The notes beneath the pieces are model-generated. The model was not told the DNA's origin. It was given only the letters and a program-made list of their open reading frames with translations, and did no database searches. This document shows positions 22,496 to 27,173 of a stretch of 64,000 nt of DNA, one piece after another; the stretch's first letter is position 1; each line of letters starts with the position of its first letter. The DNA lies in assembly GCF_000519325.1 (NCBI RefSeq), contig NZ_KI912613.1:4934171-4998170 (forward strand). The letters are read 5' to 3'. The translations under genes were made by a program, and so were the position numbers. Source of the stretch: Patulibacter minatonensis DSM 18081 (GTDB lineage: Bacteria > Actinomycetota > Thermoleophilia > Solirubrobacterales > Solirubrobacteraceae).

Positions 22496-22726
22496 TCCTC
22501 CCCTCCCCACGGCGCCGGGGTGACCGCGGAGCTCGCTCTCGCGCCGGGATCCGGGGGTGGCCGTCGACGACGACCACGTCGGCGCCGCCGCAACGTGTGG
22601 GGATGGCGAAGGTCAGGCACGATCCGGCGAAGATCGACCATGCGTCGAGCGAGCAGTTCCGCGGGGTCCACGGGGGTACCGACGACCAACGCCGCAGTGG
22701 CGACGTCCCCCAACGAAGGAGAAGAC

Positions 22727-22936
22727 ATGACCTACGGAACCGCGCTGTTCCTCATCGCCGTCGGAGCCATCCTGCGCTTCGCGGTACACGTCCACACCAA
22801 GGGCTTCAGCCTCCACACCGCCGGCACGATCCTGATGGTGATCGGCGCGATCGGCCTCGTGCTGAGCCTGATCTGGGGCCTGTCCGCGGCGCGACGCCGG
22901 GACACCGTCCTCGTCGACGACCGTCCCCGATACTAG
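22727..22936 (+). CDS. DUF6458-like small membrane protein, copy 1
   Basis: The product is 69 residues with two membrane helices (TALFLIAVGAILRFAV and AGTILMVIGAIGLVLSLIWG) and a short charged C-terminus. The pattern matches DUF6458, a family of small actinobacterial membrane proteins without known function. ATG 22727 has a strong AAGGAG ribosome site. A close paralogue lies at 26949-27173. It is followed after 10 bp by another small membrane protein gene. The 231 bp upstream region (22496-22726) holds no gene; its promoter was not identified. Confidence 0.85.
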   Translation: MTYGTALFLIAVGAILRFAVHVHTKGFSLHTAGTILMVIGAIGLVLSLIWGLSAARRRDTVLVDDRPRY

Positions 22937-23182: not shown

Positions 23183-24319
23183 TCACCGCGGCACCCCGTC
23201 GACGATCGACCGCAGGGACCGGAGCTGCTCGGTCAGCGGGGCGACGGAGGAGGCCGGGCGCGGCACCGCCTTCGACCCGTCGCCCGACGACCCGACCGCC
23301 GCGACGAGCACCACGAGCACCACGACGGCCACGAGCGCGACCACCGCACCGACGGCGCGTCGGTCGCGCCGTGCCCACGCCCGGACGGCGCCGCCGGGGA
23401 CGCCGGTCGGCGTCCCGGGGCGATCGGGAACGGGCTCCGGAGACCGGCCGCCACCGGTTCGCGGTCGTCGTGCGCCGGCGTCGCCCGGGCCCCCCACCGG
23501 GGAGAGCGGGCGGCCCCGTGGCACCTCGTCCCGCGGGAGGCGGGCGTCGATGCGGGTCGGCGCGGTGCGGTGGTGCTCCGGTGCTCCCGCGGGGTCGACC
23601 AGGATGCGCAGCGCGTCGACGGCGGAGGACGGGCGGTCCTCCGGCCGGGACCGCGTCAACGCGTCGGCGAGCCGGTCGAGTGCGTCGGACGGAGCGACCG
23701 CGGCGATCTCGCGGAGGACGACGCCGGCGGCGAAGAGGTCGCTCGCGACGGTCGCGGGACGCCCCTCGGCGACCTCGGGTGCGAGGTACTCGAGCGTCCC
23801 GATGACCATCCCGACCTGGGTCAGGGGCGACGAGCCCTCGGTCCTGGCGATCCCGAAGTCCGCGAGGTGCGCGTGGCCCTCCGCGTCGACGAGGACGTTG
23901 GCGGCCTTGACGTCGCGGTGCACGATGCCGGCGCGGTGCACCGCGCCGAGGGCGCCGAGGAGCTCGAGGGCGAGACGCTCGGGATCGGGCACCGGAAGGT
24001 CGGCCTCGCGGAGGAGCCGCGCCAGGTCCCGACCGGGGACGTGGGCCATCACGAGGAAGGGACGGCCGTCCTCGAGCCCGTGGTCGTAGACCGTGACGAC
24101 GTTCGGGTGCTCGACCGCCGCCGCGGCCCGCGCCTCGCGGGTGAACCGCGTCGCCCACTGCGGGTCCCCGGCGGGGGCGTCGGCGACGATCTTGATCGCG
24201 ACCGGACGGTCGAGGCGCCGGTCGTGCGCCAGCCACACCGACGCCATGCCCCCCGCGCCGAGCGGGCGGTCCAGGCGGTAGCGCCCGTCGGCGAGCGCGG
24301 CTCCGGCCCGCAGGGTCAT
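23183..24319 (-). CDS. PknB-type Ser/Thr protein kinase with one membrane helix
   Basis: The product is 378 residues. All kinase motifs are intact: glycine loop GAGGMASV, K43 in VAIK, HRDVKAANVL (D136), DFG (D154), APE (180-182). A Pro/Arg-rich linker leads to a membrane helix (about 322-343) and a short extracellular tail of some 35 residues, too small for a PASTA sensor domain. Its ATG overlaps the stop of the upstream lipoprotein gene (ATGA), and that gene follows a sigma factor gene by 3 bp. The operon order suggests that the kinase phosphorylates a component of the sigma factor/envelope pathway; this is inference. Confidence 0.92.
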   Translation of the reverse strand: MTLRAGAALADGRYRLDRPLGAGGMASVWLAHDRRLDRPVAIKIVADAPAGDPQWATRFTREARAAAAVEHPNVVTVYDHGLEDGRPFLVMAHVPGRDLARLLREADLPVPDPERLALELLGALGAVHRAGIVHRDVKAANVLVDAEGHAHLADFGIARTEGSSPLTQVGMVIGTLEYLAPEVAEGRPATVASDLFAAGVVLREIAAVAPSDALDRLADALTRSRPEDRPSSAVDALRILVDPAGAPEHHRTAPTRIDARLPRDEVPRGRPLSPVGGPGDAGARRPRTGGGRSPEPVPDRPGTPTGVPGGAVRAWARRDRRAVGAVVALVAVVVLVVLVAAVGSSGDGSKAVPRPASSVAPLTEQLRSLRSIVDGVPR

Positions 24320-25074
24320 CTCGTGCCGCCACGGGACGGTCCGGCGGCCTTCCCGCGACCCGCGGGGGGACCGCCGGGGCCGGCCGGGCCACCCGCCTGC
24401 CCGGGGCCCTTCGAGCCCTTCCCGCGCTTCTCGGCGTCCTTCCCGCGGCGCTTCGCGTCCTTGGCCCGCTGCTTCGCGTCCTTCGCCCGCTGCTTCGCGT
24501 CCTGCGACGGTGTCCTCGCACCCGCCGCGGGAGCCGCCGCGGATCCGGGGACGCCCGGCCCCGCACCGGGGTCCGGGGTCGACGGCCCACCAGTCGTGGT
24601 CGGGGCGGTGGTCGCACCGGTGGCACCCGACCCGGGCGCGGTCGTGACGGGCGCGGGTGTCGTCGACGCCGTGGACCCGCCGCCGGTCGACGGTGCCGTG
24701 GTCGTCGTGTCGGCCGTCGACGACGTGGCCGGCAGCTCCGCGAGGATGCGCGCCCGCGTCCGGGCGATGCCGGTCCGCAGGGCGTCGGCCTGCGCGGAGC
24801 TCAGCGCGCCCGTGCGCCGACGCTCCGCCACGGTCGTCGAGAAGGTCCGCAGGGCGCGGAGGGCCGCAGGTCGGTCCTCCGCGCTCGCCGCGCGCTGCAC
24901 CGCGGCGAGCCGTCCGGAGAGCTCCCGGCCGGTGCCGTCCGATGACGACGGGACGGACGACCCGCAGCCTGCGAGCAGCAGGAGCGGGACCGCGGCGACG
25001 AGTCCGCGGCACCGGTGGGTGATCCGTCGCACGGGTCCGATCGCCACGCGTCCGGTCTCGGCGCGGGGGTCCAC
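24316..25074 (-). CDS. Lipoprotein with Thr/Pro-rich linker and DAK/RAKD repeats
   Basis: The product is 252 residues, GTG start. A twin-Arg-free signal ends in the lipobox LLLAGC (Cys about 37). A helical domain follows (LSGRLAAVQRAASAEDRPAALRALRTFSTTVAERR, about 50-115), then a long Thr/Ser/Pro/Gly linker, then the charged repeats QDAKQRAKDAKQRAKDAKRR and a Gly/Lys-rich end. Lys/Arg repeats outside the cell could bind wall or membrane polyanions. It lies between the sigma factor and the kinase and is coupled to both (3 bp and 4-nt overlap). Family not recognised. Confidence 0.7.
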   Translation of the reverse strand: MDPRAETGRVAIGPVRRITHRCRGLVAAVPLLLLAGCGSSVPSSSDGTGRELSGRLAAVQRAASAEDRPAALRALRTFSTTVAERRRTGALSSAQADALRTGIARTRARILAELPATSSTADTTTTAPSTGGGSTASTTPAPVTTAPGSGATGATTAPTTTGGPSTPDPGAGPGVPGSAAAPAAGARTPSQDAKQRAKDAKQRAKDAKRRGKDAEKRGKGSKGPGQAGGPAGPGGPPAGRGKAAGPSRGGTR

Positions 25075-25077
25075 CGA

Positions 25078-26694
25078 TCAGTCGCCCTTGCCGGAGTTCG
25101 AGGGTTTGGTGCTCGTCGAGGATCCGCCCGGCGTGGTCCTCGCGGGCGGGCTCGCCGACGTGGTCGTGGTGGTCGACGGCTTCGACGACGTCGTCGCCGA
25201 GGATCGTCCGGAGTCCGAGGTTCCGCCGGTCGAGGAGCCGGAGCCCTTCGCGTCCTTCCGCTTCGCGGCCTCGGCCTTCGCGGCCGATGCAGCCTCGGCC
25301 TTCGCCGACTTGGCCTTCGCGGCCTCCGACTTCGCGGGCTTGGACTTCGCCGCTTCGGCCTTCGCCGCCGTCGCCTTCGCGTTCGACTTCGCCGTCTTGG
25401 CGTCCGCCTTCTTCGCCTTGGCTTCCGCCTTCGCCTCCGCCTTCGCCGTCTTCGCGTCCGCGGTCGACGCGGCGTCCGCGCGTCCTCCACGGTCGCCCGG
25501 AGGCGCCGTGGAGGCCGAGCCCGCACCGGGCGCACCGGATGCACCCGTCGTGCTGCGGTTCCCCGCCTCGCGTCCCCGTCGGGTGGCCGCCACCCCTCGC
25601 GCGTCCGCAGGCGTGCGCGCACCGGTGGCCGTGCCCGGGATCGCCGGCGAACGGACGGTGCCGCCGGGGCCCGCCGGGGACCGGTTCGCGCCGGCCCCCG
25701 GTGGTGCCGACCGGGCGGGTCCGGGTGGATCGTGGGAGACCACGTGGTCCACGGCCACCGCCCCGCCCGCGAGGGCCGTGGTGGCGGCCACCACGGCCAC
25801 GATCTTCGTCGCACCCGCGAGCGCGAGGCCCCCGCCGACCCCGGCCGTCGCGCCGACGCCCCCCGACACGCCGGCGCCCGCGGTCCCGGCGACCCCGGCG
25901 CCCGCACCCCCGGCGATCCCACCGCCCGCGGCACCGCCCTTGAGGAGCGCTGCGAGGCCCGCCGCACCCGCGAGGGGCACGACCGGCGACAGCGCGGCCA
26001 GGTCCTTCGGGCGCTGGGCGAGCGCTCCCTGGAACGTCCGGCACGACCGGCAGCTCCGCAGGTGCGCCCGCATCCGGCGCGTGCCGACGACCCGGCCGTC
26101 GTCGTCCGAGAGGGTGCGCTGGACGGTGTCACAGTCCATGGCGCGACCCTCCGCGGCGTCGCCGAGCCCCTTGCGCGCCTCGTAGATCGTCTGCTTCACG
26201 GCGCGCGCAGAGGTCCCCAGCGCGACCCCGATCTCCTCGTGACTGAGCCCGCTCAGCTCCCGCATCACCAGCGCGCCGCGCTGCCGTTCGGGCAGGTCCT
26301 GCAGGTCGGCCCGGAGGTGCCCCAGACGCTCCCGGGTCTCCACCGTCCGGTGCACCGTGTCGTCGTCGCCACCGACCCGGTCGTCGAGCTCCGCCGTCTC
26401 CGGTCGTCTGCGGATCAGCGAGATCGCTTCGTTGTGCGCGATCCGGAAGAGCCAGGGCCGTAGGTCCAGGTCGCGGTCCTCGGTCTGCAAGGCGGCGAAG
26501 GCCTTCACCATCGTGTTCTGGAGCGCGTCGTGCGCGTCCTGCTCGTGACGGAGGATCGAGCGGCAGTAGCGGAAGAGCTCCGTCCGGTGCCGCTCGTAGA
26601 GCGCGGCGAAGGCCGCGGGATCCCCCGCGACCGCCGGCGGGTGCTCCCGCGAGGCCCGGGAGCGGCGCTTCAAGACGCGTGTCGCTGCCTGCAC
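25078..26694 (-). CDS. ECF sigma factor fused to zinc-finger, membrane helix and Lys/Ala-rich tail
   Basis: The product is 538 residues, far longer than a normal ECF sigma (about 180-200). Region 2 spans about 28-97 (RYCRSILRHEQDAHDALQNT, WLFRIAHNEAISLIRRR) and region 4 about 123-176 (LPERQRGALVMRELSGLSHEEIGVALG). Then C188 with H211-x3-C215-x2-C218 forms an anti-sigma-like (zf-HC2/ZAS) zinc site, followed by a Gly/Ala-rich stretch with a membrane helix (about 292-315), and an external region of Pro/Ser/Thr and AKAEAK-type repeats (about 405-470). Sigma factor and anti-sigma elements thus sit in one membrane-tethered chain. GTG 26694 has AGAGGGG upstream. First gene of the operon with lipoprotein and Ser/Thr kinase. 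Confidence 0.88.
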   Translation of the reverse strand: MQAATRVLKRRSRASREHPPAVAGDPAAFAALYERHRTELFRYCRSILRHEQDAHDALQNTMVKAFAALQTEDRDLDLRPWLFRIAHNEAISLIRRRPETAELDDRVGGDDDTVHRTVETRERLGHLRADLQDLPERQRGALVMRELSGLSHEEIGVALGTSARAVKQTIYEARKGLGDAAEGRAMDCDTVQRTLSDDDGRVVGTRRMRAHLRSCRSCRTFQGALAQRPKDLAALSPVVPLAGAAGLAALLKGGAAGGGIAGGAGAGVAGTAGAGVSGGVGATAGVGGGLALAGATKIVAVVAATTALAGGAVAVDHVVSHDPPGPARSAPPGAGANRSPAGPGGTVRSPAIPGTATGARTPADARGVAATRRGREAGNRSTTGASGAPGAGSASTAPPGDRGGRADAASTADAKTAKAEAKAEAKAKKADAKTAKSNAKATAAKAEAAKSKPAKSEAAKAKSAKAEAASAAKAEAAKRKDAKGSGSSTGGTSDSGRSSATTSSKPSTTTTTSASPPARTTPGGSSTSTKPSNSGKGD

Positions 26695-26948: not shown

Positions 26949-27173
26949 ATGACCTACGGAACCGCCCTCTTCCTCATCGGCGTCGGCGCGATCATGCGCT
27001 TCGCCGTGCACGCCTCGACCTCCGGGTTCAGCATCCACACGGCCGGCACGATCCTCATGATCATCGGCGTGGTCGGCCTCGTCCTCAGCGTCCTGTGGGC
27101 CGCGGCCTTCGCCCGGCGCCGGGACGCGCTCCTCGAGCGGCCGGTCGTGCGCGAGCGCCGCGAGCGCTGGTAG
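26949..27173 (+). CDS. DUF6458-like small membrane protein, copy 2
   Basis: The product is 74 residues. It is closely similar to the protein at 22727-22936 (both start MTYGTALFLI and share FAVH, GFS.HTAGTILM.IG), with two membrane helices and an Arg/Glu-rich end. No clear ribosome site precedes ATG 26949. It is divergent from the sigma factor gene; the 254 bp between (26695-26948) contain no gene and probably both promoters. Function unknown. Confidence 0.82.
   Translation: MTYGTALFLIGVGAIMRFAVHASTSGFSIHTAGTILMIIGVVGLVLSVLWAAAFARRRDALLERPVVRERRERW

What the first reader, a model, noticed from the sequence alone, without database searches (positions are those of the whole stretch)
23183..26694. 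Membrane-tethered sigma factor/anti-sigma fusion in an operon with a lipoprotein and a Ser/Thr kinase
Seen: one 538-residue chain has ECF regions 2 and 4, a C188/H211/C215/C218 zinc-finger-like site, a single membrane helix and a 220-residue external Lys/Ala/Ser/Thr-rich part. It is followed at 3 bp by a lipoprotein ending in DAK/RAKD repeats and then (ATGA overlap) a PknB-type kinase with an almost bare extracellular tail. Known: ZAS anti-sigma factors are normally separate proteins; some C-terminally extended ECF groups exist. Inference: the external repeats of both proteins sense the wall or each other, and the kinase or proteolysis frees the sigma domain. It would be a self-contained one-component sigma switch.
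Basis: partly seen in the sequence, partly recalled or inferred. Interest (0 to 1): 0.82.

Follow-up and report, generated by a model that had tools for sequence, protein, structure and literature searches.

The report
Membrane-tethered sigma factor beside kinase pair
The gene encodes a gene-switch protein (sigma factor) joined to its own inhibitor-like zinc finger and a predicted membrane anchor, a design already known in related bacteria and carried by nearly every relative, whereas the lipoprotein and kinase genes behind it are a separate conserved pair that was found next to a sigma gene only in this genome.

Summary
One 538-aa chain carries ECF regions 2 and 4, a C188/H211/C215/C218 finger, a weak membrane helix and a 222-aa low-complexity tail. 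A lipoprotein gene follows at 3 bp and a PknB-type kinase at an ATGA overlap. The finger is real: all four ligands are invariant in 44 aligned fusions, 15 of 24 finger segments match zf-HC2, and the predicted local fold is confident. The architecture is not new: ECF48, ECF52 and ECF53 are published sigma/zinc-finger/membrane fusions, and 40 of 41 genomes of the same family carry homologues. The claimed three-gene system is not conserved. None of 37 other fusion loci with usable flanks has the lipoprotein; one has a kinase, divergently oriented. The lipoprotein is instead half of its own module: 30 of 30 family loci fetched read phosphoesterase, lipoprotein, kinase, with no sigma gene. The window pair is a second, divergent type that stands without a fusion-sigma gene in three other genomes. 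Best reading: an ECF52-like self-inhibited, membrane-tethered sigma factor, behind which a lipoprotein-kinase receptor pair was placed in this lineage. Functional coupling is possible but has no comparative support.

The parts
25078..26694 (-). Sigma factor / zinc-finger / membrane fusion protein, 538 aa (GTG start)
26404..26601 (-). Sigma-70 region 2 (residues 32-97), acidic D53/D56 of region 2.2 retained
   Evidence: Pfam PF04542 6.3e-14; conservation
26170..26304 (-). Sigma-70 region 4 (residues 131-175)
   Evidence: Pfam PF08281 4.8e-12
26041..26133 (-). Anti-sigma-type zinc finger C188-x22-H211-x3-C215-x2-C218
   Evidence: Four invariant ligands in 44 fusions, zf-HC2 in 15 of 24, AF2 block pLDDT 94-98
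25747..25803 (-). Predicted membrane helix (residues 298-316), weakly hydrophobic, Lys on its N-terminal side
   Evidence: hydropathy 1.91; helix 299-309 at low confidence in the model
25081..25746 (-). Predicted extracytoplasmic tail, 222 aa, low complexity (25% Ala, 10% Lys, 25% Ser+Thr)
   Evidence: the tail differs freely between orthologues
24316..25074 (-). Lipoprotein, 252 aa: lipobox LAGC (Cys37), three-helix FIMAH-like domain (residues 48-103), Ser/Thr/Pro linker, Lys-rich C-terminal DAK/RAKD repeats
23183..24319 (-). PknB-type Ser/Thr kinase, 378 aa, ATGA overlap with the lipoprotein gene
23186..23242 (-). Short extracytoplasmic motif of the kinase (residues 360-378, APLTEQLRSLRSIVDGVPR), shared with the lipoprotein-paired orthologues

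Best explanation
The 538-aa protein is an ECF sigma factor held inactive at the membrane by its own fused zinc-finger anti-sigma domain, working like ECF52 SCO4117. Shown from sequence: one chain with sigma2, sigma4, an invariant Cys plus HxxxCxxC finger, a candidate membrane helix and a long outside tail. Inferred: the finger masks the sigma domains in cis; a signal at the envelope leads to cleavage near or in the membrane helix and frees the sigma part. The lipoprotein and kinase are a separate receptor pair: the lipoprotein's helical domain is the detached outside sensor for a kinase with only a short outside helix (inferred). In this lineage a divergent copy of that pair was placed directly behind the sigma gene, so the three are probably co-transcribed, but elsewhere the pair does without the sigma gene and the sigma gene without the pair.
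For: Domains and coordinates. Invariant finger ligands, zf-HC2 in relatives, confident local fold. Published precedents with the same order of parts and a proteolysis model. Fusion homologues in 40 of 41 family genomes and fusions in Cellulomonas, Actinomycetospora and Chloroflexi records. Genus orthologues at 77% have the fusion without lipoprotein or kinase. 0 of 37 fusion loci with the lipoprotein, 1 with a divergent kinase. 30 of 30 core lipoprotein loci with phosphoesterase and kinase, none with sigma. 0 of 17 related kinase loci with a fusion sigma; three have a related type-two lipoprotein in front. Lipoprotein-paired kinases share a short APLxxQ(L/I)xxL tail, whereas six related kinases without a detected lipoprotein carry a long TPR-like outside region.
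Against: pTM of the sigma model is 0.49, so how the finger sits on the sigma domains is not predicted with confidence. The membrane helix is marginal. Cis inhibition, cleavage, co-transcription and lipoprotein-kinase contact are all untested. Kinases with short tails but no detected lipoprotein exist (L224, L228).
Confidence: 0.68

Rival explanations
1. The three genes are one signalling unit: the lipoprotein senses an envelope signal, the kinase phosphorylates the sigma fusion (or its finger), and this releases the sigma domain.
For: Tight packing, 3 bp and ATGA. Kinase-controlled ECF factors exist (ECF43), PknB phosphorylation of anti-sigma factors releases sigma, and SCO4117 is phosphorylated at Ser15 and Thr231. 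One other fusion gene has a divergent kinase neighbour (L133).
Against: Order absent in every other locus inspected; the lipoprotein-kinase pair exists without sigma in nearly all relatives; region 2.2 acids D53/D56 are present, unlike ECF43.
Confidence: 0.17
2. The zinc finger is itself a redox or zinc sensor inside the cell, and the tail is a wall anchor only; activation is by finger oxidation rather than proteolysis.
For: Invariant Cys/His ligands. Zinc anti-sigma fingers can respond to oxidants. The tail changes freely between orthologues.
Against: Published fused groups are modelled as proteolysis-activated; in membrane-bound anti-sigma factors the zinc site may well be structural.
Confidence: 0.15

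Closest known systems
ECF52 sigma factors (SCO4117 of Streptomyces coelicolor)
   Same: ECF sigma domains, C-terminal zinc finger, membrane segment, long low-complexity outside region
   Different: No carbohydrate-binding domain found in Pfam; tail Ala/Lys/Ser/Thr-rich rather than Pro-rich; group-level phylogeny not tested
ECF48 and ECF53 sigma factors
   Same: Described as C-terminal fusions with a zinc finger and one to two membrane helices in Actinobacteria
   Different: Their models were not available here, so membership could not be tested
Class I zinc-binding anti-sigma domain (RsiW, ChrR, RsrA)
   Same: HxxxCxxC signature with an upstream Cys; RsiW is a weak, non-significant solved-structure match over HLxxCxxC
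   Different: Fused to the sigma factor instead of being a separate protein; a short form of about 50 residues
ECF43 with Hanks-type kinase (EcfP/PknT, EcfK/PknS)
   Same: ECF gene next to a membrane Ser/Thr kinase gene
   Different: Region 2.2 acids are kept, the sigma is fused to a finger and membrane helix, and the kinase linkage is not conserved
GlnH-GlnX-PknG (Corynebacterium, Mycobacterium)
   Same: A binding protein outside the membrane controls a Ser/Thr kinase (papers found, abstracts only)
   Different: No GlnX-like middle protein found; the lipoprotein here is a small helical domain, not a solute-binding protein

Membership tests
ECF sigma factor | Regions 2 and 4 only | tested here: met
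   Pfam and NCBIfam; solved ECF structures match
zf-HC2 / zinc-binding class I anti-sigma domain | HxxxCxxC with an upstream Cys/His ligand | tested here: met
   Invariant in 44 fusions; 15 of 24 segments match zf-HC2, best 4.9e-5; the window protein alone is below the curated cut-off
zf-HC2 / zinc-binding class I anti-sigma domain | Binds and inhibits the sigma domains | not testable with these tools
   pTM 0.49 leaves the domain arrangement open
ECF52 | Sigma domain, zinc finger and membrane helix in one chain | tested here: met
ECF52 | Proline-rich extension with a carbohydrate-binding domain | tested here: not met
   No such domain in Pfam at E<=10; tail 9% Pro
ECF48 / ECF53 | Group membership by ECF classification models | not testable with these tools
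   Models not held
ECF43 | Loss of the acidic DxxD in region 2.2, replaced by a phosphorylatable Thr | tested here: not met
   D53 at least 90% and D56 invariant; definition
ECF43 | Conserved linkage to a Hanks-type kinase gene | tested here: not met
   1 of 37 fusion loci, divergent
PASTA-type PknB kinase | Extracellular PASTA domains | tested here: not met
   235 bits against a cut-off of 450, kinase domain only; no PASTA in Pfam
Family-wide lipoprotein-kinase module | Lipobox plus three-helix domain gene directly before a membrane kinase gene | tested here: met
Family-wide lipoprotein-kinase module | Phosphoesterase gene upstream | tested here: not met
   The window copy has the sigma gene there; the genome's core copy L089 has the phosphoesterase

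The most novel reading that the evidence does not exclude
A lineage-specific recruitment has turned a family-wide lipoprotein-kinase receptor into the input for a self-inhibited membrane sigma factor, giving a three-gene envelope-to-transcription relay in which a kinase acts on a sigma/anti-sigma fusion.
Probability: 0.13. Interest if true: 0.65.

Novelty: new member of a known kind. Interest (0 to 1): 0.4.

Why it matters
The fused sigma factors are present in nearly every genome of this family, often several per genome, with tails ranging from low complexity to possible SH3-like domains, so the family is a rich natural set for learning how ECF52-like proteins are released. The lipoprotein-kinase module that surfaced on the way is linked in 30 of 30 loci and makes a clear prediction about what activates a kinase with almost no outside domain; what activates bacterial Ser/Thr kinases is a recurrent open question.

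Tried and rejected
Misassembly or frame error after residue 225: rejected, genus orthologues share the layout. Finger by chance: rejected. Conserved three-gene system: rejected on the loci available. ECF43-type phospho-activation: rejected on region 2.2. Promoter/terminator scan uninformative, 0 sites of each kind. Fold search with the lipoprotein model gave nothing below E 0.3. The fold search with the sigma model found sigma chains only and says nothing on the finger. Alignment A2 was made in wrong frames and discarded. Two genome searches failed on the machine and were repeated in another form. A crude gene caller was misled by shadow ORFs and is not relied on.

Full report
Observation. The three minus-strand genes are as described: sigma fusion 25078-26694, lipoprotein 24316-25074, kinase 23183-24319. 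The first gap is 3 bp and the second junction is an ATGA overlap. High G+C gives long shadow ORFs in other frames; the three genes are the ones with homologues.

Sigma fusion. Pfam finds regions 2 and 4 well above cut-off and zf-HC2 only marginally. Relatives settle the finger. I aligned the window protein with 43 fusions from the same genome, genus and family. Invariant positions are D56, Q59, W81, L82, L134, R174, L177, C188, H211, C215 and C218. The last three were a selection criterion when the set was assembled; C188 was not. The spacing between C188 and H211 is 22 or 23 residues in 42 of 44 sequences. Of 24 finger segments scanned alone, 15 match zf-HC2, best 4.9e-5. The structure model has mean pLDDT 94-98 per ten residues over the finger but pTM 0.49 overall, so the local fold is confident and the arrangement of domains is not. 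A weakly hydrophobic segment at 298-316 is followed by 222 residues of low complexity; most homologues have a comparable layout, with tails of varied composition.

How common the fusion is. The window's genome has seven sigma genes with finger and extension, the window gene included. Homologues occur in 40 of 41 genomes sampled from the family, one to eight per genome at E<=1e-25. Fusions with the same order of parts also occur in Cellulomonas uda, an Actinomycetospora MAG, and MAGs labelled Chloroflexi and Proteobacteria. Published groups ECF48, ECF52 and ECF53 have this architecture and are expected to be activated by proteolysis; SCO4117 (ECF52) is the characterised one, and a strain with the truncated sigma domain is affected less than the full deletion. 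The window protein lacks the carbohydrate-binding domain that is part of the ECF52 description, so I call it ECF52-like and do not file it there.

The three-gene order. In the two genus orthologues with intact flanks (77% identity), neither lipoprotein nor kinase follows. In one of them (L040) the gene beyond the sigma gene is a homologue of the small gene found beyond the kinase in the window, which suggests that the pair was added between sigma and that neighbour in the window's lineage; two such small genes flank the window operon, so this is suggestive, not proof. Two further orthologues are cut by contig ends, but no second lipoprotein was found in those genomes either. Across 37 fusion loci with usable 3-prime flanks, an HMM and tblastn find no lipoprotein and one kinase, in L133, divergently oriented.

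The lipoprotein-kinase pair. A profile of the lipoprotein helical domain finds one copy in 36 of 41 family genomes and two in the window's genome. In all 30 loci fetched the order is phosphoesterase, lipoprotein, kinase, and none has a fusion sigma gene in the flanks held. In the genus loci with enough flank the tgt gene lies beyond the kinase. The window pair is the second, divergent type: its kinase is closer to kinases in other genera and families of the order (44-56% identity, E down to 2e-76) than to those of its own genus (best E 7e-49). Of 17 such loci, three (L214, L215, L217) have a related lipoprotein directly before the kinase, a fourth (L229) is a core-type locus, and none has a fusion sigma gene in the fetched flanks. 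The lipoprotein domain is predicted as a three-helix bundle with sub-threshold similarity to the FIMAH domain in both module types.

Anatomy of the pair. Window, L214, L215 and L217 kinases end outside the membrane in 36 to 43 residues that share APLxxQ(L/I)xxL; their lipoproteins end in Lys-rich stretches. Six related kinases without a detected lipoprotein (L218-L223) have 151 to 171 outside residues that look like TPR repeats by eye. This either-or pattern fits the lipoprotein being the detached sensor of the kinase. It is a small sample, and L224 and L228 have short tails without a detected lipoprotein.

Mechanism. Most likely the finger inhibits the sigma domains in cis and cleavage frees them. 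The lipoprotein and kinase are probably transcribed with the sigma gene in this genome; whether they act on it is open. Kinase activation of the ECF43 type is unlikely because region 2.2 keeps its acids; action on the finger or linker is not excluded.

Limits. ECF group models were not available. No transcription, membrane or phosphorylation data were available. Many family genomes are draft assemblies, and the genome panels are samples.

Noticed in passing
L088, L089, L090, L091, L093, L094, L169-L198: Conserved phosphoesterase-lipoprotein-Ser/Thr kinase module, linked in 30 of 30 family loci fetched (L169-L198); in genus loci tgt lies beyond the kinase.
   Followed up: yes
L015, L016, L018, L054 (sigma fusion genes): Paralogous fusion sigma factors with structured outside regions; L015, L016 and L054 have sub-threshold SH3-type matches (best 4e-4), L018 looks alike by eye. 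Possible wall-binding sensors.
   Followed up: partly
window 22726-22936 and 26961-27173: Two similar small genes (MTYGTALFLI..., about 70 aa) flank the sigma-lipoprotein-kinase operon in the same orientation; a homologue lies beyond the sigma gene in L040.
   Followed up: partly
L218-L223: Kinases related to the window kinase with a long TPR-like outside region and no detected lipoprotein, against short-tailed kinases with one.
   Followed up: partly
L133:3-3118: The only other fusion sigma gene found with a kinase neighbour, in divergent orientation.
   Followed up: no
L013 and L020 (sigma fusion tails): Runs of N in the held genome fall inside the tails of two paralogues, so their tails cannot be read fully.
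   Followed up: no
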